A DNA stretch of 64,000 nucleotides, from contig JAKAGT010000002.1 of NCBI GenBank assembly GCA_021825585.1, positions 62,001 through 126,000 on the forward strand, written 5' to 3'. The stretch is from Bacteroidota bacterium. Its GTDB lineage: Bacteria; Bacteroidota; Ignavibacteria; Kryptoniales; JAKASW01. Each line of letters begins with the position of its first letter. Position 1 is the first letter of the stretch. This document shows, piece by piece, positions 1-9,750 of the stretch. The notes under the pieces are model-generated. The model had not been told where the DNA came from, searched no databases, and was given only the letters and a program-made list of their open reading frames with translations. A program made the position numbers and the translations under genes.

Positions 1-457
1 GTGTAAAATATTGTCCCGCCCCACTCTTGACATCCTCTGCATTTTTCTGCAGGAGACCTTCGTATATCTCACCCTTTATGTCTACGTCCAGCCCCATCCA
101 GGTTTCATCGTTTATCAGTTCGACAAGTCTCTTGAGCTTTGCGGGATCCTGAATCTTGTTTTGGGATTTCCTGAATATGACTCCAAGCATTCCGGATTCT
201 TTTCCAAGCGAATCCAGTATGTGTCTATAATGAACTTCGAGATCGTCACCGTCTTTCCTGGTGAGACTTTGCCAGTCCAGACCTTCCGGAATTGCGGATG
301 GTTTGCTGAATGGCGGTTTAGACTGTTCATCCGCCATCTTGAGGAAAAGCAAATACGTAAGCTGCTCAACATAATCGCCGTAGCTAACGCCATCGTCACG
401 AAGAACGTTGCAGTAGTTCCAGAGGCGCTGGACTATCGTGGATGATTCTGATGACAT
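1..457 (-). CDS. hsdM: Type I restriction-modification DNA methyltransferase subunit HsdM, N-terminal 152 residues (cut by window edge)
   Basis: The frame opens with ATG at 457-455, preceded by an AAAGGA ribosome binding site, and stays open to base 1. The protein starts MSSESSTIVQRLWNYCNVLR and continues through YGDYVEQLTYLLFLKMADE to GLLQKNAEDVKSGAGQYFTP-like residues at the edge. This is the HsdM_N helical domain followed by the lead-in to the SAM-binding methylase domain (GQYFTPR is the family signature just before it). HsdM transfers a methyl group from SAM to adenine in the site chosen by HsdS. It is the last visible gene of the operon hsdR - HATPase - TIR-APAZ - pAgo - hsdS/fic - hsdM, 74 bases downstream of hsdS/fic. 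The catalytic NPPF/Y motif lies outside the window, so activity cannot be judged. Confidence 0.93.
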   Translation of the reverse strand, partial: MSSESSTIVQRLWNYCNVLRDDGVSYGDYVEQLTYLLFLKMADEQSKPPFSKPSAIPEGLDWQSLTRKDGDDLEVHYRHILDSLGKESGMLGVIFRKSQNKIQDPAKLKRLVELINDETWMGLDVDIKGEIYEGLLQKNAEDVKSGAGQYFT

Positions 458-492: not shown

Positions 493-532
493 TTACCCAA
501 TATATTGCCCAATTAGCCATTTATTACCCAAT
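493..532. repeat. Three short direct repeats in the hsdS/fic-hsdM spacer
   Basis: On the plus strand the 9-mer TTACCCAAT occurs at 493-501, as TTGCCCAAT at 505-513, and again exactly at 524-532, where the last copy overlaps the stop codon of hsdS/fic. The 74-base spacer is AT-rich. It may reflect a short tandem expansion or a recombination scar; no function is evident. Confidence 0.5.
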
Positions 533-3168
533 TAAAACCTCTTGGTCCGCTCCCATTCCGCATATTTTCCTTTTCCCAAACACTTGACCTTCCCGTGACT
601 CCGCAAATCCTTCAATACTCGGCGAATCATATCGACACCAACGCCGGGTACTTTCTTCTGGAGGTCGACCACGCGGAAGGGTTTATCCAGATTTGCGAGA
701 ACGGAAAGGACTCTCTGTGTCTTTGCGCCACGGGGCTCAGCGACTCTGGAAAGCTGCTCCTCGAATTCTTTATAGGCGAGCTTCATCATCGAAAGAATAA
801 AATTAGTATAAGGCCAGGGATTGTGCTTTCCTTCATGCCATCCTTTTGAGCTCTCTTCGAGGGTCTCGTAGTAACGTCCTTTGTTCTCCTCGATTATTCG
901 CTCTATGCTGATGTATCGTCCGACTTCAAAGCCAAGATGATACAGTCCGAGAAGCAGCAACAGGCGGGAGACCCGACCGTTTCCATCACGAAAAGGATGT
1001 ATACAAAGGAAGTCTAAATTGAAGCCGGCGACGAGAATCAGCGGATGAACCCATCTTTCCTTCATCCCGTCAGACCACATCTTCACGAGATCTTGCATTG
1101 CTCCAGGAGTGCGGGCACTTGATACCGGATGGAATCGTACTCGTTCTCTTCCGTCCGGAAACTTCTCGATGATGTCTCCATCCTTCTCCTTGTATTCACC
1201 GGCGTCCCAGACATCTCCACGACTCATTTTGTGGAGTCGAAGTATGGACTCTTCTGAAACCGGTAGTGAAGCAGCCCTGGAATGAACAAGATCAAGAGCC
1301 TTCCTGTACCCCCTTACCTCTTCCTCGTTGCGATCCGTGAGAAGTTTCTTCCCAAATACGACCGTGCCCGCTCTTTTCGAATCCAATTCCACGCCTTCAA
1401 TTCTGTTCGAAGACACTGCACTTTCGATCAGTGCATGCTCCCTAAGACTCTTCAATTTCTGCGGAGCCTGATTTTTGAATAGCTCCTGTTTTCCTCGCGC
1501 TTCGCCCAAATCGGCTAAGTACCATGAAGTCGATGCCGGAATGCTTTCGATTCCTTTGGCGTATTGTCTCAGAGTCATCATCGTCTTTTCTCTTTCTTGA
1601 TTCTTGATTCTTGCTTCTGATGTCCGACCTCTATTCTTCGCACCTTCCGAACTTCTGGACTTCTTATCTTCTTCCCTCGAGCTTCTGATTCGTTCCAGGA
1701 GGACCGACGCCGGTTCATCACTCGGATCCTGCGGCACCAGCTTCCCTTCAAACGCCATCTTCAAAATGCTCTGCCTCAATCGCTCAGCTTGTTTGAGGCT
1801 CGCCTCCACGTTTCTCTCAACCTCGTCCGCCGCAGAAAGCCGATGCTCTACTTCGAAGACAATTTGCTGCTGTTCGGCAATGCCACAAAGTGCGAACGGT
1901 GATGTACGAACCCTTTCTAGGACAATACGTTTGATGGCTGTGCCCGTCATCTGACCAGCGATCATCTTCTGACCAAGAGGACTATCTATAAACACTTTGA
2001 TATACTTGCCAATCACGAAATCCTTTCTGGGCTTCAGCAAGGCGATACTTGACAACACGCTAAACTCTTCATCCAATGTATTGACGGCGGTGTCCCCGGT
2101 ATTCACGCCGTCTTTTGTCAGCAATACATCGCCTTTTTCCGGATTGCACCGTTTAAAGATATTTCTGTGAAAGGCCTCATCGATATAGGCGATGTCTGAT
2201 AGGTCAAGGCCACTTTGCCTAATATTCTTAGCGGTAATATAGAGGAATCTTCCAGGACCAGATTCTGGATATTGGACTTTAGGAGAAAAGTGCGTCCCGT
2301 CTTGAACCTTTTCACAGGCACTCTCCATGCTCGTCCACTCCCATCCTTCGGGCAACTTTGGCAACTCGGACGTATCGATTGGCGACAGTTTTTTTTCCTT
2401 GCCATTCTTTGCCCGTTCTGCCCGTATTCGTTCGAGAAGATCCGCCACTGATCCTTCACCCTGTCTCCCGGTCCCCGCGTCCCCCCGTCCCCCCGTCTCC
2501 GAGTCCCCCCGTCCCCCCGTCTCCGAGTCCCCCCGTCCCCTCCTCCATTCCTCGGTCAGCTTTCCTTCCACCGCCGCCTTGAGCACCGCCTGCCTGTACC
2601 TCTTCAATTCCGCTTTGACTTTCTTCAGCGCTTCGACACCGGCATCCAGGTCTGAGAAGAGTTCTTCTATCTTCTCAACGATGCGGTGCTGCTCGGGAAG
2701 TGGAGGAAGAGGAAAGTCAAAGGTTCTCAACTTCGATTTCGAGATTTCCTTGAAGGTGGTTCCTGTAGCTTTATCGTTGAGTATCTGTCTGATAGAAAGC
2801 AGCCAATAGGCAAGATATAAATTGAATAGTCCGGGGGGACAAACAATGGATGCAAAGCCTTGATTGGTAGCTAATTCTTTTCCTGCAATCGCAATATTAC
2901 CGATGGTTGCCCGAGAAGTCAGCAAAACGGACCCAGGTGGGACAAGCCTAGCGGAGCTTTTTCTCAATCCAAGTTCGGTTATTTTTTCTTTGGAAGATAT
3001 GATCGTGGCAATCCTGGCTCTCGGAATTTCAGTCGGAGTGAGCCACGTTATTTCGCCACCGAAATATTGAGGAACGTCGCGTGATGGTGTACCACCGCCG
3101 ACCACTTCTTCAACCACATCGCTAATCGTTGCCCACAACCAACTTTTCGGCAATCCGTCTTTAATCAT
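532..3168 (-). CDS. hsdS: HsdS specificity subunit fused in frame to a complete Fic AMP-transferase
   Basis: This 878-residue protein has two parts. Residues 1-515 are a normal two-domain HsdS: target-recognition domain 1 (about 8-155), a conserved coiled coil (LPPLPEQHRIVEKIEELFSD onwards), a Gly/Arg/Asp repeat linker (211-234), target-recognition domain 2 (about 275-440) and a second coiled coil ending near FEGKLVPQDPSDEPAS. Residues 530-878 are a full-length Fic protein: inhibitory helix motif SNRIEG (587-592), Fic motif HPFRDGNGRVSR starting at His724, and a C-terminal winged helix. HsdS selects the DNA site for HsdM and HsdR. Fic enzymes AMPylate proteins using ATP, and the S-x-x-x-E-G helix normally keeps them off. 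An internal ATG-ATG at 1581-1576 with a weak AAAGAGAAA upstream could also give a free 349-residue Fic protein. The ATG start at 3168 overlaps the pAgo stop (ATGA). Confidence 0.9.
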   Translation of the reverse strand: MIKDGLPKSWLWATISDVVEEVVGGGTPSRDVPQYFGGEITWLTPTEIPRARIATIISSKEKITELGLRKSSARLVPPGSVLLTSRATIGNIAIAGKELATNQGFASIVCPPGLFNLYLAYWLLSIRQILNDKATGTTFKEISKSKLRTFDFPLPPLPEQHRIVEKIEELFSDLDAGVEALKKVKAELKRYRQAVLKAAVEGKLTEEWRRGRGDSETGGRGDSETGGRGDAGTGRQGEGSVADLLERIRAERAKNGKEKKLSPIDTSELPKLPEGWEWTSMESACEKVQDGTHFSPKVQYPESGPGRFLYITAKNIRQSGLDLSDIAYIDEAFHRNIFKRCNPEKGDVLLTKDGVNTGDTAVNTLDEEFSVLSSIALLKPRKDFVIGKYIKVFIDSPLGQKMIAGQMTGTAIKRIVLERVRTSPFALCGIAEQQQIVFEVEHRLSAADEVERNVEASLKQAERLRQSILKMAFEGKLVPQDPSDEPASVLLERIRSSREEDKKSRSSEGAKNRGRTSEARIKNQEREKTMMTLRQYAKGIESIPASTSWYLADLGEARGKQELFKNQAPQKLKSLREHALIESAVSSNRIEGVELDSKRAGTVVFGKKLLTDRNEEEVRGYRKALDLVHSRAASLPVSEESILRLHKMSRGDVWDAGEYKEKDGDIIEKFPDGRERVRFHPVSSARTPGAMQDLVKMWSDGMKERWVHPLILVAGFNLDFLCIHPFRDGNGRVSRLLLLLGLYHLGFEVGRYISIERIIEENKGRYYETLEESSKGWHEGKHNPWPYTNFILSMMKLAYKEFEEQLSRVAEPRGAKTQRVLSVLANLDKPFRVVDLQKKVPGVGVDMIRRVLKDLRSHGKVKCLGKGKYAEWERTKRF
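2467..2538. repeat. 24-bp in-frame tandem repeat in the HsdS inter-domain linker
   Basis: Three consecutive 24-bp units encode GRGDSETG, GRGDSETG and GRGDAGTG (HsdS residues 211-234). The first two are almost identical in DNA; the third is degenerate. The repeat lies between the coiled coil after recognition domain 1 and domain 2. In the EcoR124 family, a change in a short repeat at this place (TAEL twice or three times) changes the spacer of the recognised bipartite site. Copy number here could vary by slippage without breaking the frame. Confidence 0.8.
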
Positions 3169-4676
3169 ATGTAATATCTGAAAGCCAAAGGTGGAGGCGA
3201 TTCGATAGGACCAGCGGTGAGTATCTCTCCAACCGCATCAGCAAAACGGAGAGTGACAGGTAAACCATCTCCGAAAATGCACGCGTTATAGTTCAATTTT
3301 GTCAAAGCAAGTATGTCTTTCATCACAGTTTTGATGTTTGCCGTCCCTCTTGATACTTCAACGTAAAGTGGGTTTGGAACTTCTAAAGACAATGATGTCT
3401 GAAGGCGAGGGACAAAACCTTTCGTCCAAAGATATGCGGATCTGTCATCCTGAATATAAGCAGTACCCCTAAGAACCGGATAATTCCCATCTCTATAGAG
3501 TTTGAGTGTGTTCACAGGTTTAATTGTGACTCCTACTAGGGCAGTCTCATCTGGCACGGCTTCAGAAAAACCCTCCCATTCTTCGGTATTGAACTTCGAT
3601 CTTGCGTGAATGAAGAACTCCAAAGGTGGTCTCCCATGTTGCCTCCTATATGTCTCAATCGCCAACGTCAGCAGCTCTCGAGCAGGTTGCCTTTTCAAGT
3701 GAAATTCGCCCTTCTTGGCGTTATACCACGGTCCGACAGCACCCTTGAATACGATTCCATCTCCTGAATCAAGAAACATCTGAGCGGCACAACAAGCGTT
3801 TCGTGACTCCCTTGATTTCAAGTCGACTTTATAAGCCAATCCCACGTAGCATACACCCTCGCGGACGCTGAATAACTTCCACGGCCGACCGCCAACCTTG
3901 TAGAAAGTTGCAGTCGAGAGGTTCCAAGCCACTTCAGCCTTCAATTTCCCTATCTGCCTGATCGGCCGATTGAAATTATTAAGATAATCTTCAGGTTTTA
4001 GCGTACTCTCCCTTACGATTTGAGTCGGTACGGTATAAGGCAACAGCTTAGCCTTAAGTTGATTTCTGAAATCGACATCATATCTGTAAGGCGCGACCTC
4101 ATCCTCTATTTCCTTGAACAATGACGGAGCATTTACAAACTCTTTGGCGCTTGACTGACTTGTTCTCCTACTTGAAGACACGCGACCAATCGGTAGTGAT
4201 GACTTCGGTCTGCAATATACGTAAACCTCGTCCGGTATGATGACGAACCAAATATCACATTTCACGTCTTCGTTCTTTATTGTATCAATGATCTCCCACG
4301 CAAATACATCAACGGTTCCAAAGACTCTGTAATGACTATCTTCATGGAACAAATGGACATTAAGTACCTGCGGGTCAATTGTTCTTTTCACCAATCGAGA
4401 AGGTAGCCACTTTAGTCCAAATACATTTTCAAAACCTGGGAATGAAGGTCTCGAGGTTTCGCTCTTCTCGTTACGAGTTATACTTTGAATCTCCTCTAGC
4501 CACTGCTCAAATTTGCGGATACCAACTGCGGTGCCTACTACCCCGCAGGTTATTCCGTAAGGTTTTAGTTCATCCAAAGGTCCAAATAATGTGAGCCCAT
4601 CGCGTGGGTCCCAGGTCTCCTGGTTGTGTCCGAAAACTATCTGAGGTTCATCTATGTGAATGAGCCTTAGATTCAT
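3165..4676 (-). CDS. Short prokaryotic Argonaute (MID-PIWI), SPARTA guide-binding subunit
   Basis: The 503-residue protein has no PAZ domain and is the usual size for a short pAgo. Signatures are AWNLSTATFYKVGGRPWKL (MID-PIWI boundary, about residue 255), YVGLAYK (first PIWI strand), FFIHARSKFNTEEWEGF (PIWI core) and the C-terminus PPLAFRYYI, whose terminal carboxylate helps hold the guide 5' phosphate in this family. The catalytic DEDX tetrad is not present (the first Asp position reads GLAYK), so it should bind but not cut. In known SPARTA systems this subunit loads a small RNA guide and, on pairing with DNA, makes the partner TIR domain oligomerise. The ATG start lies 2 bases after the TIR-APAZ stop and the stop overlaps the hsdS/fic start, so the three are translationally linked. 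Confidence 0.93.
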   Translation of the reverse strand: MNLRLIHIDEPQIVFGHNQETWDPRDGLTLFGPLDELKPYGITCGVVGTAVGIRKFEQWLEEIQSITRNEKSETSRPSFPGFENVFGLKWLPSRLVKRTIDPQVLNVHLFHEDSHYRVFGTVDVFAWEIIDTIKNEDVKCDIWFVIIPDEVYVYCRPKSSLPIGRVSSSRRTSQSSAKEFVNAPSLFKEIEDEVAPYRYDVDFRNQLKAKLLPYTVPTQIVRESTLKPEDYLNNFNRPIRQIGKLKAEVAWNLSTATFYKVGGRPWKLFSVREGVCYVGLAYKVDLKSRESRNACCAAQMFLDSGDGIVFKGAVGPWYNAKKGEFHLKRQPARELLTLAIETYRRQHGRPPLEFFIHARSKFNTEEWEGFSEAVPDETALVGVTIKPVNTLKLYRDGNYPVLRGTAYIQDDRSAYLWTKGFVPRLQTSLSLEVPNPLYVEVSRGTANIKTVMKDILALTKLNYNACIFGDGLPVTLRFADAVGEILTAGPIESPPPLAFRYYI

Positions 4677-4678
4677 TT

Positions 4679-6031
4679 CTAATCTTGATCTCCTACTTCA
4701 GCTTCCTCAGTGCCCTCATTCAGATCTTCGGACTCCTCGTCAGAGCTGATAATATTCCGGTCTTCCTTGCGAGGTTCGGAATAAGAAAGATAGCTGAGGC
4801 AAGAAATCGGTTCTGTGGCGATTTCGCAAGATTCTTCCGATCCAAGAGGTAGAACAACTTTGTTGGCTTCCCCCCCAACCAGCTTCATGAGCCTGAGCAG
4901 TCTCTCCCTCCAGTCAGAATTCCACCACCCCTTACCTTGTTTTCGTCTGGCTTTATGCTGAATGGAACTAGACTTGATGATTTCCTGGCCGTCTGAAGTA
5001 AAGACAATGTGCGATCTGACCGATATGGCAGGTTGCGGATAGAGTTTTGTGGAACCACTCACTGCAAAGTGCCAATACCTCTCGCCAAGTGTGCCGACCA
5101 GTTTTATCCGCCCAACTCTGTCTGTCTTGTTGAAGCCATGCTGCAACCAGTAAGCAGTTTTTCCATTGGCCATTGAATACAACCGCAGACCCAGCAAGGG
5201 CATGGTCTTGTCGAACGATCTATTTATCAACTCTATAATGACTCTTCGTGCTTCCCAGGCAGGAATTAGATCGTCGGTGAGTCTCTCGTTGATAATGTCT
5301 TCGACTAAAAGCGATATTGTCTTATTCGGATTGTATGTGGTCGTCTTAGGTAGTTCCTCCAAAAAGTCGTAGCACCAAGCAAAGGTCACCAAATAGTCGC
5401 CATATTCCCTTGCTGGATATTTCAATGTATCAAAAGGTATCCTATCATACCGAATTTGTTTCTTAAACATGTGGAAGTTTAGCTTGTCGGGCATTTTCAA
5501 AATTGGGAACCAGTTCGTCAAGAGAATTTCTTCCTTTTGAATCAGCCCGATATTCGCGGGGTGTTTAGAGTGCCACCATTCCTTTACTTGCGCTGGACCT
5601 TCTGAAACTGGTTTGTTGACTTTATCATCATCCAATTTGTCTACAAGTTGTCCCAGACCGTGAGACCACCCTTGGACGAACGGGATAGAGTTGAGACGCA
5701 TTAGGTCAATATTGACATCGTCGTGGGACAGAGTCTTGTCGACATGCAGCGGGATTATGAAATCCTTGAAGCCCTTTGCCACTTTTTGAGCTAAAGCGAG
5801 TTCTTTCAGAGTCCCGCTCTTATGGTTTGACGCCTTTGAAAGGACGTACAGGTACTTTATTGTGTCGTTTCGTAAAACTGGTTCAATTACTTCCCAAAAA
5901 TCTTCGCCCCCTTTTAAGTTCATTATGTCACACCACACTACGTAACCCAACCCCATCATTTTAAGAGACAGCCATTGAGCGAATTCATTATCCTCAGGAT
6001 TGGCGTGACTGATGAAAATCGTGTCTCTCAC
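4679..6031 (-). CDS. TIR-APAZ protein, SPARTA NADase effector
   Basis: The N-terminus (MRDTIFISHANPEDNEFAQW) is a TIR domain. The catalytic glutamate is in SGTLKELALAQ and falls on residue 77, the same number as in the characterised Maribacter protein. The rest, from about 150 to 415, is an APAZ region (YGDYLVTFAWCYDFLEELP, TAYWLQHGF, GERYWHFAVSGSTKLYPQP). The last 30 or so residues form a very acidic tail (SSDEESEDLNEGTEEAEVGDQD); tails of this kind have been reported to occupy the nucleic-acid channel in related complexes. Length (450) matches the family. Known SPARTA TIR domains degrade NAD(P)+ after guide-target pairing and stop or kill the cell. The start is GTG at 6031-6029; an in-frame stop lies five codons upstream, and the GTG overlaps the stop of an hsdR relic as GTGA. 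Confidence 0.93.
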   Translation of the reverse strand: MRDTIFISHANPEDNEFAQWLSLKMMGLGYVVWCDIMNLKGGEDFWEVIEPVLRNDTIKYLYVLSKASNHKSGTLKELALAQKVAKGFKDFIIPLHVDKTLSHDDVNIDLMRLNSIPFVQGWSHGLGQLVDKLDDDKVNKPVSEGPAQVKEWWHSKHPANIGLIQKEEILLTNWFPILKMPDKLNFHMFKKQIRYDRIPFDTLKYPAREYGDYLVTFAWCYDFLEELPKTTTYNPNKTISLLVEDIINERLTDDLIPAWEARRVIIELINRSFDKTMPLLGLRLYSMANGKTAYWLQHGFNKTDRVGRIKLVGTLGERYWHFAVSGSTKLYPQPAISVRSHIVFTSDGQEIIKSSSIQHKARRKQGKGWWNSDWRERLLRLMKLVGGEANKVVLPLGSEESCEIATEPISCLSYLSYSEPRKEDRNIISSDEESEDLNEGTEEAEVGDQD

Positions 6032-6093
6032 ACCACAAATTCCCTATTCATTTCGGCCATGATCGGTTCCAACTTCTCGCCGAAAACCTGATT
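6028..6093 (-). pseudogene. Relic of a second hsdR 3' end
   Basis: The 21 codons before the TGA at 6030-6028 read NQVFGEKLEPIMAEMNREFVV. The end of the intact hsdR (about 7062-6997) reads AYQLFGERLEPVMADLNMELVR. The two align residue by residue without gaps but differ at the DNA level, so this is a diverged homologue and not a recent copy. The relic stop overlaps the TIR-APAZ start as GTGA, the same geometry by which the intact hsdR stop overlaps the HATPase gene start. It appears to be what remains of an hsdR gene that once directly preceded the SPARTA pair. Confidence 0.8.
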
Positions 6094-6124
6094 AGTGTTG
6101 GGGCACAATTCACGGCTGATGATT

Positions 6125-7000
6125 TCACCTTTTTGTTGTCCCTTTTCTAATCGCTCCTTTTGCTTTAGCCGTGAGTGAATAATAGCCTTTGCGCAATGAC
6201 CCTGTGAATTCTACCAGCCCGCCACCCCTGAGCAGTGCAACATCACGCTTTGCCGTGCGGGTCGACACATGAAGCATTTCCTGAATTCCACCCAACTTCA
6301 TCTCTTTTCCCTGAAACAACGCAATAATTAAAATGACGAGTCTCTGAAGAATGGGGTCATCAATGGTGCCACCAACGGTGACATGAATGGTGTCACGAAC
6401 ACTCTCAGCAACAGCATCCTCAACGGCATCAAGAACACCCTCACGAACAGCATCATGAACGGCATCCAGAACAATATCGCCGATGGGAATGGGAACTCTC
6501 TTGACGGGTCTCCTGAAAGTAACCGTAAAGAACGAATTGAACTCGAACTCAGGGGGAGGGAGCTTGGCTTGCTTGAGAATTTCTCTCATTCTGCTCACAC
6601 CAGTCCCCATCTTCTCCACATAACCGCTGCGGTGCAGTAAAGATGCAATATTTGGGTTCCTCAAAACGCTTCTCTTGCCGAAATTCTCGGGTGTCAAGCC
6701 CTTCACCAATCCACCGGGGTTGGATATCTCGACACGATCATCAAATATCTCCACCATTACATTAGCACCGCGCTCAAAGTAGTCGCGATGCGCAACGGCA
6801 TTGACCACTGCTTCTCTAAGGGCAGCCTCAGGTACCTGAAGGATTTCTCTTCGGCGTGAACGGCCAGTAATCTCATAACGAAGGGGGAGATTCCGCCTAA
6901 GGAATTTCAGAGTAGCCTCGATGTTAGCTAGCCTTTCTTTGAATTCTATCCGGTATCCTTCAAGTTCCTGCAATATGACTCTTAGCTCCTTGTCCGTCAC
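6125..7000 (-). CDS. AlbA/HATPase-type putative transcriptional regulator with internal deletion
   Basis: This 291-residue protein belongs to the predicted regulators with an N-terminal AlbA/Schlafen-like domain and a GHKL ATPase-like domain (COG2865-type). It begins like the family (ELRVILQELEGYRIEFKERLA). It then jumps at about residue 26 to NIEATLKFLRRNLPLRYEITG, which normally lies more than 150 residues later, so most of the AlbA domain seems deleted in frame. The GHKL N-box is present (REAVVNAVAHRDYFERG, 62-78) with DDRVEISNPGGLV and MGTGVSRMREIL. Residues 175-205 are an imperfect repeat (VLDAVHDAV, VLDAVEDAVAESVRDTI), and a winged helix follows. The GTG start overlaps the hsdR stop as GTGA. 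Such genes often accompany type I RM operons; the exact role is unknown. Confidence 0.8.
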   Translation of the reverse strand: MTDKELRVILQELEGYRIEFKERLANIEATLKFLRRNLPLRYEITGRSRRREILQVPEAALREAVVNAVAHRDYFERGANVMVEIFDDRVEISNPGGLVKGLTPENFGKRSVLRNPNIASLLHRSGYVEKMGTGVSRMREILKQAKLPPPEFEFNSFFTVTFRRPVKRVPIPIGDIVLDAVHDAVREGVLDAVEDAVAESVRDTIHVTVGGTIDDPILQRLVILIIALFQGKEMKLGGIQEMLHVSTRTAKRDVALLRGGGLVEFTGSLRKGYYSLTAKAKGAIRKGTTKR

Positions 7001-9750
7001 CGAACCAACTCCATATTCAAATCCGCCATGACCGGCTCCAACCTCTCACCGAATAGCTGATACGCCTTCACCCTTCCTCCCTTGTCAAAGAACGGTGAAT
7101 TGTCAAAGTCGTCCATACTGATCACCGCCGATGTTGCAATGTGGTCTTTTATCATCTTAAGCCATGTCATCTCTTCAGGTTTGAACTCGCGCCCCTGCTC
7201 TTCCTGTTTTGATATCCAGGACTTGAACCTCTCTTCGACGATTTCAGGGAATGGTACCAGTACGTCACTCATGCCGACCGCATAACGGACAAGTGCAATC
7301 ATGTCCGTCATGAGCCTTGCAGGTCCGGCTCCACGGACTTTCGATTTCTCAAGTTGTTCGTAAGCGTTCCAGATCCCCTCTTCTGTAAGCCGGTATGGCG
7401 GCTTCTTTATGGCAGACGCGAGCTCCTCGATCATCTCGTAAGTAAGCTGCCTCTGTCCATACGGCTTCCCATAGATTACCCGTAGCGCGTCTATTTCATT
7501 TTTGTTTTCTTCGATGAACTTCCGGAACGTATCAACTGTGTTTTTCGCCTTCTCTTTTGCCTTTTCATCAAATCCAGTGAACACCACTTTGTCTTCGCTC
7601 ACTTTGTCGATGACCTGCTCGTTCCGCTTCTTAATATCGACGATAACTTCACGGAGCGCCGGATCATCGAACGGCATACAGGCTTGGGCAGCAAGGTCAT
7701 TCTTTGATGTTTTCAACTGTGCCTCAGATGGGCTGCCGGTCCTGAATTTGTCCTGTGCGTATTTAAGCTGTCGGTCCGGGTCGATCGAGTCGAGAAGTGA
7801 ATTCACAATCTGGCTAATGCTCCTCCCCCCCGACACCCTTTCTATCTGCTTTCTTTCCGCCTCGATTATTTCCCTATCCATCCTGGCAAGTCTTCCCGCA
7901 AGTGACGAAAGGGTGTCTTCGTCTCGTATACCAATAGCCACGGATTGTATCAACTTCTCGAAGGGGACCGTTCGCTTTCTTTCCAGCGGGCGGGTGTCTG
8001 TTTTGTCGGATTCACACACGCCAACCGCATCCACGATTATGAAGCCCGTCTTGTTCTTCGCGTCTGACGTTACCGCTTGAAAATCGTTTTCGTCGATGAC
8101 ACGCGATCCCCGCCCCTTCATCTGGTCAAAATACAGGAGAGATTTCACGTCTCTCATGAAGATCAGGCATTCCAGCGGGCGGATGTCCGTTCCAGTCGCT
8201 ATCATGTCCACCGTTACGGCAATACGAGGATAAAATGAATTGCGAAAGCTCTGTATCAGATCCTCCGGCTTTTCACCTGTCGTGCGATAAGTGATCTTTT
8301 TGCAAAAGTCGTTCCCCTTTCCAAATTCTTCTCTTACGATGTGAACGATGTCTTCCGCATGAGAATCGTCTTTCGCGAAAATCAACGTCTTTGGAACCTC
8401 TGTTCGTCCAGGAAAAATCTCCGTGAATAGGCGTTCTTTGAATGTCTTAATGACAGTCCTGATTTGGTCGGGAACTACAACGGCTCGATCAAGTTGGTTA
8501 GGGCTATATAAGAGATCGTTGTCAAGCTGCTCCCATCGGGTCTCACGCGTCTGTCTATCGCGCTTGTCGATGAAAAACCCTGCCTTTACCTTACCCCCTT
8601 TTTTGGTAATGTCAGTCTCGATCCGGTACACATCATATCCGACATTCACGCCATCGGCAACGGCACGCTCGTGGTTGTATTCCATCACGAGATTCTTGTC
8701 GAAGAAACCTATCGTCTGCTTGGACGGCGTAGCTGTAAGACCAATTAAGAAGCTGTCGAAATACTCAAGCACCTGTCGCCACAGATTATATATCGAGCGG
8801 TGGCATTCGTCCGTAATTATGAAATCAAATGTCTCAATGGGGATATCGGGATTATACTCTACTTCTTTCGGCTCGCCGTTCGAAATGGGCAGATCGAAAA
8901 GTGATGTTTCCTCGGCATCTTCGCTAAATTCCTTCTCTCCTTTCAACATCGAAAACAGACGCTGGATCGTCGTTATGCAGACACGACTCACCGGGTCAAT
9001 TGCATTTGTAGTGAGGTGCTGGATGTTGTAGAGTTCAGTGAATTTCCTCCCGTCATCCGGTGCGATATACTGTTCGAATTCCCGCTTAGTCTGCTTCCCC
9101 AGGTTGTTGCGATCTACAAGGAAAAGAATCCGCTTAGCATTTGCGAACTTGATAAGCCGGTATACAAAGCTCACGGCTGTATAAGTCTTTCCACTGCCCG
9201 ACGCCATCTGTATCAAAGCGCGTGGTCTGGCTTCTGCGAAGGACTGTTCGAGATTAGTAATCGCTTCGTACTGGCAATCCCGAAGACGGTCCTTAACAAG
9301 CTCCGGCATACTTCTCAGCCTTCCTCGAAGTGTGTCATTGTCCGCCAGGTAGTCAGCGAGAGTTTCAGGTTTGTGGAAGGCAAAAACCCGTCGCGAGCGG
9401 GCGTCCGGATCTCTCACATCCCGAAAGAAAGTCTCCTTGCCGGTGCTTTCATAACCGAAAGGTAAAGGAAGCTGCACGTGGGGGACGCTTTTGGCGAGGT
9501 CCTCCATATATCCTTGTGACTGTTCAGCTACGCCGCTAAGGGTGATTCCAACCGGCTTAGCCTCGATGACACCAACCGCTTTCCTGTCTACAAAGAGCAA
9601 ATAGTCTGCTGGTCCGCTATTCGTGGGAAATTCACGAACGGCCACGCCAATCGATGCTCCAAGGTTCAGCCTGCCGTAGTCCTGAACATTCCACCCCGCT
9701 TTCGCGAGTAAATCGTCGATTATTATCCGAGCTTGTTCTTCAGGCTTCAA
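6997..9750 (-). CDS. hsdR: Type I restriction endonuclease subunit HsdR (DEAD-box translocase/nuclease)
   Basis: The 917-residue protein has a PD-(D/E)xK nuclease domain at the N-terminus (GPADY with Asp49, then VIEAK with Glu63 and Lys65). A superfamily 2 helicase motor follows: Walker A ASGSGKT (183-189), DECH (314-317), GLTATPSKQT, and motif VI QMKGRGSRV. The C-terminal helical domain ends AYQLFGERLEPVMADLN. This is the EcoEI-type R subunit, which pumps DNA after HsdS-HsdM bind an unmethylated site and cuts at a distance. No key residue appears to be missing. The annotated start is TTG at 9750 with no clear ribosome binding site, and no in-frame ATG is seen just upstream, so the start is uncertain. 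It is the first gene of the defence operon. Confidence 0.95.
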   Translation of the reverse strand: MKPEEQARIIIDDLLAKAGWNVQDYGRLNLGASIGVAVREFPTNSGPADYLLFVDRKAVGVIEAKPVGITLSGVAEQSQGYMEDLAKSVPHVQLPLPFGYESTGKETFFRDVRDPDARSRRVFAFHKPETLADYLADNDTLRGRLRSMPELVKDRLRDCQYEAITNLEQSFAEARPRALIQMASGSGKTYTAVSFVYRLIKFANAKRILFLVDRNNLGKQTKREFEQYIAPDDGRKFTELYNIQHLTTNAIDPVSRVCITTIQRLFSMLKGEKEFSEDAEETSLFDLPISNGEPKEVEYNPDIPIETFDFIITDECHRSIYNLWRQVLEYFDSFLIGLTATPSKQTIGFFDKNLVMEYNHERAVADGVNVGYDVYRIETDITKKGGKVKAGFFIDKRDRQTRETRWEQLDNDLLYSPNQLDRAVVVPDQIRTVIKTFKERLFTEIFPGRTEVPKTLIFAKDDSHAEDIVHIVREEFGKGNDFCKKITYRTTGEKPEDLIQSFRNSFYPRIAVTVDMIATGTDIRPLECLIFMRDVKSLLYFDQMKGRGSRVIDENDFQAVTSDAKNKTGFIIVDAVGVCESDKTDTRPLERKRTVPFEKLIQSVAIGIRDEDTLSSLAGRLARMDREIIEAERKQIERVSGGRSISQIVNSLLDSIDPDRQLKYAQDKFRTGSPSEAQLKTSKNDLAAQACMPFDDPALREVIVDIKKRNEQVIDKVSEDKVVFTGFDEKAKEKAKNTVDTFRKFIEENKNEIDALRVIYGKPYGQRQLTYEMIEELASAIKKPPYRLTEEGIWNAYEQLEKSKVRGAGPARLMTDMIALVRYAVGMSDVLVPFPEIVEERFKSWISKQEEQGREFKPEEMTWLKMIKDHIATSAVISMDDFDNSPFFDKGGRVKAYQLFGERLEPVMADLNMELVR

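What the first reader, a model, noticed from the sequence alone, without database searches (positions are those of the whole stretch)
532..9750. A complete SPARTA (TIR-APAZ plus short Argonaute) system embedded inside a type I restriction-modification operon
The minus strand reads hsdR - HATPase regulator - TIR-APAZ - short pAgo - hsdS/fic - hsdM. All junctions from hsdR to hsdS are overlaps or nearly so (GTGA, GTGA with the relic, 2-base gap, ATGA), so the two defence systems are one transcriptional and translational unit. Seen: TIR catalytic Glu77, APAZ, MID-PIWI with a dead catalytic site. Known: SPARTA depletes NAD(P)+ after RNA-guided DNA recognition. Inferred: RM acts first and SPARTA backs it up by abortive response, or HsdR-made DNA ends or fragments feed pAgo. 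I do not know of SPARTA described as an internal part of an RM operon.
Basis: partly seen in the sequence, partly recalled or inferred. Interest (0 to 1): 0.88.

Follow-up and report, generated by a model that had tools for sequence, protein, structure and literature searches.

The report
RNA-guided suicide defence inside restriction operon
A known bacterial alarm that destroys the cell's NAD when it detects foreign DNA is here carried as an exchangeable passenger inside the gene cluster of a restriction enzyme, and related Argonaute alarms sit inside unrelated restriction clusters elsewhere.

Summary
On the minus strand hsdR, a truncated HATPase/HTH gene, TIR-APAZ, short pAgo, an hsdS-fic fusion and hsdM follow one another; hsdM runs off the window but is complete (485 aa) in the contig. 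TIR-APAZ and pAgo are ordinary, apparently intact SPARTA proteins (pAgo 53% identical to a homologue with a solved structure).

Added here: (1) The RM genes are a conserved scaffold, hsdR-[slot 1]-hsdS-[slot 2]-hsdM. None of 15 related loci carries SPARTA; 14 carry other cargo, often toxin- or defence-like. (2) A 66-bp relic before TIR-APAZ is an hsdR 3' end, slightly closer to a sibling allele's than to the window's own, so SPARTA probably came by allele recombination. (3) hsd genes flank SPARTA on both sides in 2 of 90 other distinct SPARTA loci, and SIR2-type short pAgo systems in 2 of 16 other pAgo loci of the phylum sample, in mutually unrelated RM families (HsdM identity 22-30%).

Effectors embedded in type I RM operons are a known kind (PrrC, DarTG2). 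Short pAgo systems as such cargo are a new variant, not found in my literature searches. Functional coupling is untested; shared expression with layered, independent action is the likeliest reading.

The parts
6997..9750 (-). hsdR, type I restriction subunit, EcoEI-like, 917 aa
   Evidence: Pfam HSDR_N, ResIII, EcoEI_R_C; 83% identical to HsdR of same-genus G430
6125..7000 (-). HATPase_c_4 + HTH gene, 291 aa, truncated: lacks the AlbA_2/Schlafen core present in same-genus L154 (499 aa) by an in-frame deletion of about 621 nt
6028..6093 (-). relic of an hsdR 3' end, its TGA overlapping the TIR-APAZ start; 55/66 nt identical to the hsdR end of L154, 50/67 to the window's own hsdR end, 46/66 to that of L140
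   Evidence: (blastn E 5e-14 against nine loci)
4679..6031 (-). TIR-APAZ subunit of SPARTA, 450 aa, Glu77 present
3165..4676 (-). short prokaryotic Argonaute of SPARTA, 503 aa
1582..3168 (-). hsdS part of the HsdS-Fic fusion (24-bp repeat in its central linker)
532..1581 (-). Fic part of the fusion, from the position that corresponds to the fic start in L154; HPFRDGNGR present
   Evidence: that HPFxxGNGR is the Fic active-site motif is recalled
1594..1618 (-). heptanucleotide tandem repeat at the hsdS/fic joint; one more unit (+7 nt) than L154, which puts the two frames together
2459..2540 (-). 24-bp tandem repeat (3.4 copies) in the HsdS linker
1..457 (-). hsdM 5' part; gene complete in L026 13001-14458 (485 aa)

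Best explanation
This is a complete SPARTA system (RNA-guided, DNA-triggered NAD(P)ase) riding as cargo in a type I restriction-modification operon. The RM genes hsdR, hsdS and hsdM form a conserved scaffold with two variable slots, one between hsdR and hsdS, one between hsdS and hsdM, which take different genes in different genomes. In this genome slot 1 holds a degenerate HATPase gene and SPARTA, and slot 2 holds fic, fused to hsdS. SPARTA probably came in by recombination between two alleles of the operon, bringing along the last 66 bp of a sibling hsdR (the relic is seen; the event is inferred). Most likely working: the passengers are transcribed with the RM genes and inherited with them. 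RM cuts unmodified incoming DNA. If DNA escapes and is transcribed and replicated, SPARTA binds it with a small RNA guide, oligomerises and destroys NAD(P)+, stopping the infected cell (established for the family, inferred here). No physical or signalling link between the two systems is shown.
For: SPARTA identity and intactness: PADLOC Aga_TIR and pAgo_I; near full-length PDB matches E 1e-119 and 2e-180; Glu77 in register. Scaffold with slots: the hsdR family is present at E<=1e-100 in 24 of 245 class genomes, the window's included; I fetched loci from 18 of the other 23. In 15 of 18 both hsdR and hsdS are visible, always hsdR before hsdS on one strand, and in 12 of the 15 hsdM follows; none has a TIR-APAZ or pAgo hit; 14 have other genes in at least one slot, one (L150) none recognised; L143 and L156 have an empty slot 1 with hsdR overlapping hsdS. 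Named cargo includes AlbA_2/HATPase, HEPN_Swt1, GmrSD_N, PD-(D/E)XK, OLD-like ATPase-TOPRIM, RhuM-Fic, Fic, PIN, DUF488, DUF5131. Origin: the relic is 84% identical over 69 nt to the hsdR end of same-genus G453, 55/66 against 50/67 for the window's own hsdR end. G+C of TIR-APAZ and pAgo is 45% against 49-50% for hsdR, hsdS and hsdM. Recurrence: hsd genes on both sides in 2 of 90 other distinct SPARTA loci (L033, L102) and on one side in 5 (L046, L061, L080, L095, L107); SIR2-type pAgo systems embedded in 2 of 16 further pAgo loci of the phylum sample (L199, L202). HsdM proteins of the five embedded cases share 22-30% identity in local alignments.
Against: No transcript, guide-RNA or phage data. 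83 of 90 SPARTA loci were not counted as RM neighbours, the T. thermophilum (L039) and M. polysiphoniae (L042) loci among them, and four plasmid loci have no annotated hsd gene nearby (that gene table is incomplete), so the RM context is not needed. Only 58 of the 90 have 3 kb or more on both sides of pAgo, the upstream side including TIR-APAZ, so the embedded fraction is rough. The relic is short and its parentage rests on about five positions; L140's hsdR end is less like it (46/66) than the window's own. Joints upstream of TIR-APAZ are loose: 93 nt in the window, about 270 nt in L033, 62 nt in L102. hsdR is interrupted by stops or split in 3 of the 15 loci (L151, L156, L157), so the scaffold is not always active. 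Not all cargo genes were put through Pfam.
Confidence: 0.7

Rival explanations
1. Functional coupling: the RM complex senses, restrains or feeds SPARTA. Either RM holds SPARTA silent and phage inhibition of RM releases it (as with PrrC), or HsdR translocation and cutting produce the DNA ends or single strands that SPARTA detects.
For: PrrC is a precedent for coupling inside a type I operon (passages of PMC3874165, and PMC3506569). In the three SPARTA cases flanked on both sides, pAgo lies directly upstream of hsdS: 4-nt overlap in the window and in L033, 9-nt gap in L102.
Against: None of 15 loci with the related scaffold carries SPARTA, and 83 of 90 SPARTA loci were not counted as RM neighbours. 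SPARTA has its own sensor (guide RNA plus target DNA). RM families around embedded pAgos are unrelated, which fits poorly with a specific protein contact.
Confidence: 0.15
2. Plain defence-island clustering: SPARTA landed near RM genes because defence genes accumulate together, and the operon-like layout has no further meaning.
For: pAgos are enriched near RM and other defence genes (passages of PMC2743648 and PMC6299218). In L061 and L080 SPARTA lies after a complete hsd set and before an AAA_15/DUF3696 ATPase gene; in L095 after an hsdS end.
Against: In the window, L033, L102, L199 and L202 the pAgo genes lie between hsd genes on the same strand, with overlaps or gaps under 12 nt at the pAgo/hsdS or hsdS/SIR2 joints. 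The relic points to exchange at the hsdR boundary. Empty slots exist in relatives.
Confidence: 0.2
3. Dying locus: truncated HATPase, hsdR relic and hsdS-fic fusion mean that the operon, SPARTA included, is decaying.
For: HATPase lost its AlbA_2 core, hsdS and fic are fused, and the relic is debris. Broken hsdR genes occur in related loci.
Against: The window's hsdR, TIR-APAZ, pAgo, hsdS-fic and hsdM are open and of full length; TIR Glu77 and HPFRDGNGR are present; the HATPase deletion is in frame.
Confidence: 0.08

Closest known systems
SPARTA (short pAgo + TIR-APAZ)
   Same: Both proteins full length, same gene order, pAgo 53% identical to the Thermoflavifilum thermophilum homogue L039, whose sequence agrees with PDB 8ifk_B as printed; TIR Glu77
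   Different: Here inside a type I RM operon; L039 and the Maribacter polysiphoniae locus L042 show no hsd hit in the roughly 10 kb held on each side
EcoprrI/PrrC (anticodon nuclease embedded in a type IC RM operon)
   Same: Cell-stopping effector encoded inside an hsd operon (PMC3874165, passages)
   Different: PrrC is held and released by the RM enzyme; SPARTA has its own RNA-guided sensor, and no link to RM is shown
RRDM island of enteropathogenic E. coli (DarTG2 between hsdS and hsdR)
   Same: A complete second defence system inside a type I RM operon; the authors suggest a recombination hotspot (PMC12255303, passages and Discussion)
   Different: Other cargo and other slot (hsdS-hsdR there; hsdR-hsdS here); no RptR was looked for here
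'Guilt-by-embedding' defence candidates (Payne et al. 2024 preprint; not held, seen only as a citation in PMC12255303)
   Same: General idea that defence genes lie inside other defence operons
   Different: I could not check whether that work lists pAgo systems inside type I RM

Membership tests
SPARTA | short pAgo, full length, homologous to solved SPARTA pAgo | tested here: met
   PDB 8ifk_B E 2e-180 over 4-503; PADLOC pAgo_I E 7e-200
SPARTA | adjacent TIR-APAZ protein, full length | tested here: met
   PDB 8ifk_A E 1e-119 over 1-439; PADLOC Aga_TIR E 3e-126
SPARTA | TIR catalytic glutamate | tested here: met
   Glu77 aligned with L039, L042, L033, L102; that it is the catalytic residue is recalled
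SPARTA | inactive PIWI catalytic site | not tested
   expected from close homology only; no comparison with an active PIWI was made
SPARTA | guide-RNA/target-DNA activated NAD(P) hydrolysis | not testable with these tools
   biochemistry needed
Type I restriction-modification (EcoEI-like) | hsdR, hsdM and hsdS all present with family domains | tested here: met
   Pfam and PADLOC (for hsdM the first 152 residues); hsdM complete in L026
Type I restriction-modification (EcoEI-like) | active restriction and methylation | not testable with these tools
   needs methylome and restriction assay
Effector embedded in a type I RM operon (PrrC, DarTG2 kind) | effector genes between hsd genes, same strand, tight spacing | tested here: met
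   spacings -4, 93 (with relic), 2, -4, 74 nt
Effector embedded in a type I RM operon (PrrC, DarTG2 kind) | co-transcription with hsd genes | not testable with these tools
   promoter/terminator scan uninformative
PrrC-type coupled toxin | effector held silent by the RM complex | not testable with these tools
   no data; variable cargo in relatives argues against it

The most novel reading that the evidence does not exclude
Type I RM operons serve as a modular carrier in which RNA-guided Argonaute alarms are repeatedly installed because the two work together: restriction removes most invaders, and what it leaves (escaped, transcribed DNA, or single strands and ends made by HsdR) is what the pAgo system detects, so that the pair behaves as one two-stage system. 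SPARTA and SIR2-pAgo systems in unrelated RM families would be convergent examples.
Probability: 0.15. Interest if true: 0.82.

Novelty: new variant of a known kind. Interest (0 to 1): 0.55.

Why it matters
It gives a concrete case, with sequence evidence of how it may have arisen, of an RNA-guided abortive system carried as exchangeable cargo of a DNA-restriction system, and shows Argonaute systems in such positions in five mutually unrelated RM operons. That makes testable whether embedded defence genes merely travel and are expressed with RM or depend on it, and it gives a place to look (the slots beside hsdS) for further effectors.

Tried and rejected
Scan for other hidden hsdR/M/S remnants in 1.2 kb on either side of 92 SPARTA loci (some duplicates left in): the known neighbours L033, L046, L080, L095, L102, plus weaker hits in L085 and L049 upstream and L086 and L091 downstream. 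A remnant as short as the window relic would be missed: the window's own relic, put in as a control, was not reported.

Plasmid SPARTA loci: 102 plasmid records have a pAgo match; I looked at the annotated surroundings of 4 and none lists an hsd gene (the PLSDB gene table is incomplete). Viral contigs: one relative, L113, no hsd hit there.

Promoter/terminator scan: not above shuffles, so no claim about promoters.

pAgo tree: quick search, SH-aLRT only, 84 rows. One row (L162) was translated badly and sits on an absurd branch; it was left in. Embedded cases need at least two changes and RM neighbourhood as then labelled (7 rows, L107 not yet among them) five; clustering of the labels is no stronger than in shuffles. 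The order around the window and L033 is unresolved, so independence rests mainly on the unrelated RM families.

Considered less likely: that the relic derives from the window's own hsdR (50/67 against 55/66 for the sibling; a small difference). Rejected: that HATPase belongs to SPARTA (it occurs in the same slot without pAgo in L141 and L154).

Counting rules: the genome-contig scan kept 80 of 148 relatives. Rows before duplicate removal: L033-L113 (81), L029, and 12 loci fetched; 4 duplicates removed. The thirteenth locus (L192, 32% identical) was left out; it has an hsdM-like gene about 3.6 kb downstream of pAgo. Not counted as neighbours: L104 (hsdM about 8 kb downstream, other genes between), L056 (hsdM about 7 kb upstream on the other strand), and single-gene hits L038, L049, L085 (and weaker ones with E above 1e-10). 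Among the 16 further pAgo loci, weaker single-gene hits in L194, L196, L200, L203, L207 were not counted either. The 15 scaffold loci come from 18 fetched of 23 genomes besides the window's. Shared cargo exists: L140 and L145 both have a HEPN_Swt1 gene in slot 1, with different slot 2 contents.

Full report
Observation. hsdR (9750-6997) has the type I N-terminal, helicase and EcoEI C-terminal domains; the hsdS part of the fusion matches type I specificity subunits (PADLOC E 5e-107, residues 4-516); hsdM begins at 457 and is complete, 485 aa, in the contig left of the window (L026). TIR-APAZ and the short pAgo match chains of solved structures over nearly their whole length (E 1e-119 and 2e-180). 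Glu77 of the TIR domain aligns with the same residue in the T. thermophilum (L039) and M. polysiphoniae (L042) homologues. By sequence these are SPARTA proteins; that they work is inferred.

Junctions. hsdR/HATPase and pAgo/hsdS overlap by 4 nt, TIR-APAZ/pAgo are 2 nt apart, HATPase/TIR-APAZ are 93 nt apart with the relic between, and hsdS-fic/hsdM are 74 nt apart. One transcript is likely from spacing but not shown; the promoter and terminator scan is at chance level.

Scaffold and slots. With the window's HsdR as query, 24 of 245 genomes of the class, the window's included, have a match at E<=1e-100. I fetched surroundings from 18 of the other 23; three stretches end within or soon after hsdR. 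In the other 15, hsdS follows hsdR on the same strand, and in 12 of the 15 hsdM is seen further on. In three of the 15 hsdR itself is interrupted or split (G361, G442, G031). Between hsdR and hsdS (slot 1) and between hsdS and hsdM (slot 2) lie varied genes. Slot 1: AlbA_2/HATPase in G520 and G453; HEPN_Swt1 in G430 and G124; an OLD-like ATPase-TOPRIM in G055; DUF488 in G224; DUF5131 in G361; a PD-(D/E)XK gene in G031; nothing in G236 and G442, where hsdR overlaps hsdS. Slot 2: Fic in G430, G236, G453, G361 and G031, RhuM-Fic in G148, GmrSD_N and PDDEXK_4 in G124, PIN in G520. In G502 no cargo was recognised. No TIR-APAZ or pAgo hit occurs in any of the 15: SPARTA is this genome's slot 1 cargo. 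All 13 genomes held for the genus were searched for HsdM: 3 have it at E<=1e-100, the window's, G453 (96% identical) and G430 (92%), each with different slot 1 contents.

Origin of SPARTA here. Between HATPase and TIR-APAZ lie 66 bp that read as an hsdR C-terminus, ending in a TGA that overlaps the TIR-APAZ start codon just as hsdR's own TGA overlaps the HATPase start. The relic matches the hsdR 3' end of G453 at 84% over 69 nt (E 5e-14 against nine loci): 55 of 66 positions, against 50 of 67 for the window's own hsdR end and 46 of 66 for G430's. The simplest reading is recombination between two alleles of the operon, one hsdR-HATPase and one hsdR-TIR-APAZ-pAgo, leaving the tail of the second hsdR as a scar. 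The donor allele has not been seen, and the difference in match is only about five positions, so a diverged duplicate of the window's own hsdR end is not excluded. TIR-APAZ and pAgo have lower G+C (45%) than hsdR, hsdS and hsdM (49-50%). The HATPase gene has lost its AlbA_2 core in frame relative to G453, and hsdS and fic, separate and overlapping in G453, are fused by one 7-nt repeat unit.

How general. 80 SPARTA loci kept from the genome scan (of 148 relatives found), one viral contig, one further locus of the phylum sample (G301/L029) and twelve from searches of other phyla (fetched) make 94; 4 duplicates removed leaves 90, of which 58 have 3 kb or more on both sides of pAgo. Two are flanked on both sides by hsd genes: L033 (WOR-3; hsdR-hsdM-DUF3800-TIR-APAZ-pAgo-hsdS-HNH) and L102 (RUG14463; hsdM-RhuM-TIR-APAZ-pAgo-hsdS-ORF-hsdR-YgjP-like). 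Five have hsd genes on one side: L061 and L080 (hsdR, hsdM, hsdS upstream), L046 (hsdM end upstream), L095 (hsdS end upstream), L107 (hsdM-like start downstream at the contig end). In the phylum sample (19 of 395 genomes with a pAgo match, 20 loci; all 20 surroundings fetched) three loci are embedded: the window, G217/L199 (hsdM-hsdS-SIR2-APAZ-pAgo-deaminase/HATPase-hsdR) and G011/L202 (hsdM-hsdS-SIR2-APAZ-pAgo in one 1062-aa protein-ORF-hsdR). HsdM proteins of the five embedded cases are 22-30% identical to each other, so they are different RM families and the embedding probably happened several times. The pAgo tree does not contradict this but is weakly resolved near the window, and the labels are no more clustered than shuffled ones.

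Against a special bond: 83 of the 90 distinct SPARTA loci were not counted as RM neighbours (partly limited by contig ends, and five of them have a distant or weak single-gene hit, listed under Tried and rejected), the T. thermophilum and M. polysiphoniae loci among them; four plasmid loci list no hsd gene.

Mechanism. SPARTA is activated by invading DNA and then hydrolyses NAD(P)+ through its TIR domain (start of the abstract of PMC11156904 in the listing; details such as guide RNA loading recalled). Restriction acts on unmodified DNA at entry; SPARTA would act on DNA that has survived and is being expressed. Being in one operon, the two are inherited and probably expressed together. I therefore favour layered but independent action (confidence in the whole statement 0.70). 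A PrrC-like or substrate-feeding link stays possible at about 0.15.

Known or new. PrrC inside EcoprrI (PMC3874165, passages), toxin-like domains in many type I and III RM loci (PMC3506569, passages), DarTG2 between hsdS and hsdR with the suggestion of a hotspot (PMC12255303, passages and Discussion), RM genes among the defence genes associated with pAgos (PMC2743648, abstract and passages) and HsdS among proteins enriched near pAgos (PMC6299218, passages) are in print. In the listings of my searches and the passages I read I saw no description of SPARTA or another short pAgo system inside an hsd operon. I did not read every listed paper, the library holds open-licence PMC papers only, and the Payne et al. 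2024 preprint on embedded defences could not be read. Hence: new variant of a known kind.

Noticed in passing
window 1594-1618: Heptanucleotide repeat at the hsdS/fic joint with one more unit than same-genus L154; copy number decides whether hsdS and fic are one or two proteins, a possible slippage switch.
   Followed up: partly
window 2459-2540: 24-bp tandem repeat in the HsdS central linker; L140 has a shorter version and L154 none. In type IC enzymes a linker repeat sets the gap in the recognition site (PMC3874165 passage).
   Followed up: partly
window 6350-6473: 12/24/36-bp repeats in the HATPase gene between the HATPase and HTH parts, coding a DAVxDAV-like stretch.
   Followed up: no
L140 12179-12766, L148 6889-7422 and 12280-12741: IS200-like Y1 transposase genes sit in the cargo slots of the hsd scaffold (Pfam); L144 6754, L154 2305 and L202 10249 look similar by eye but have no Pfam hit. 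They could help cargo exchange; enrichment over the genome background was not tested.
   Followed up: partly
L027 9094-11942 (G000:C9): The same genome has a second short pAgo with a DUF4365 partner (SPARDA-like), with no hsd hit in the 18 kb fetched.
   Followed up: partly
L199 10372-11859: A dCMP-deaminase plus HATPase_c_4 protein lies between a SIR2-APAZ/pAgo pair and hsdR.
   Followed up: no
L061 7568-8524; L080 5211-5891: KwaB-like gene between hsdS and TIR-APAZ in L061; uracil-DNA glycosylase family gene between hsdR and hsdM in L080.
   Followed up: no
L038 5731-8637: A 968-aa gene with an HsdM-profile hit (E 3e-18) ends at the base where the TIR-APAZ reading frame starts (Allomuricauda), so SPARTA may also follow single-chain methyltransferase genes.
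   Followed up: no
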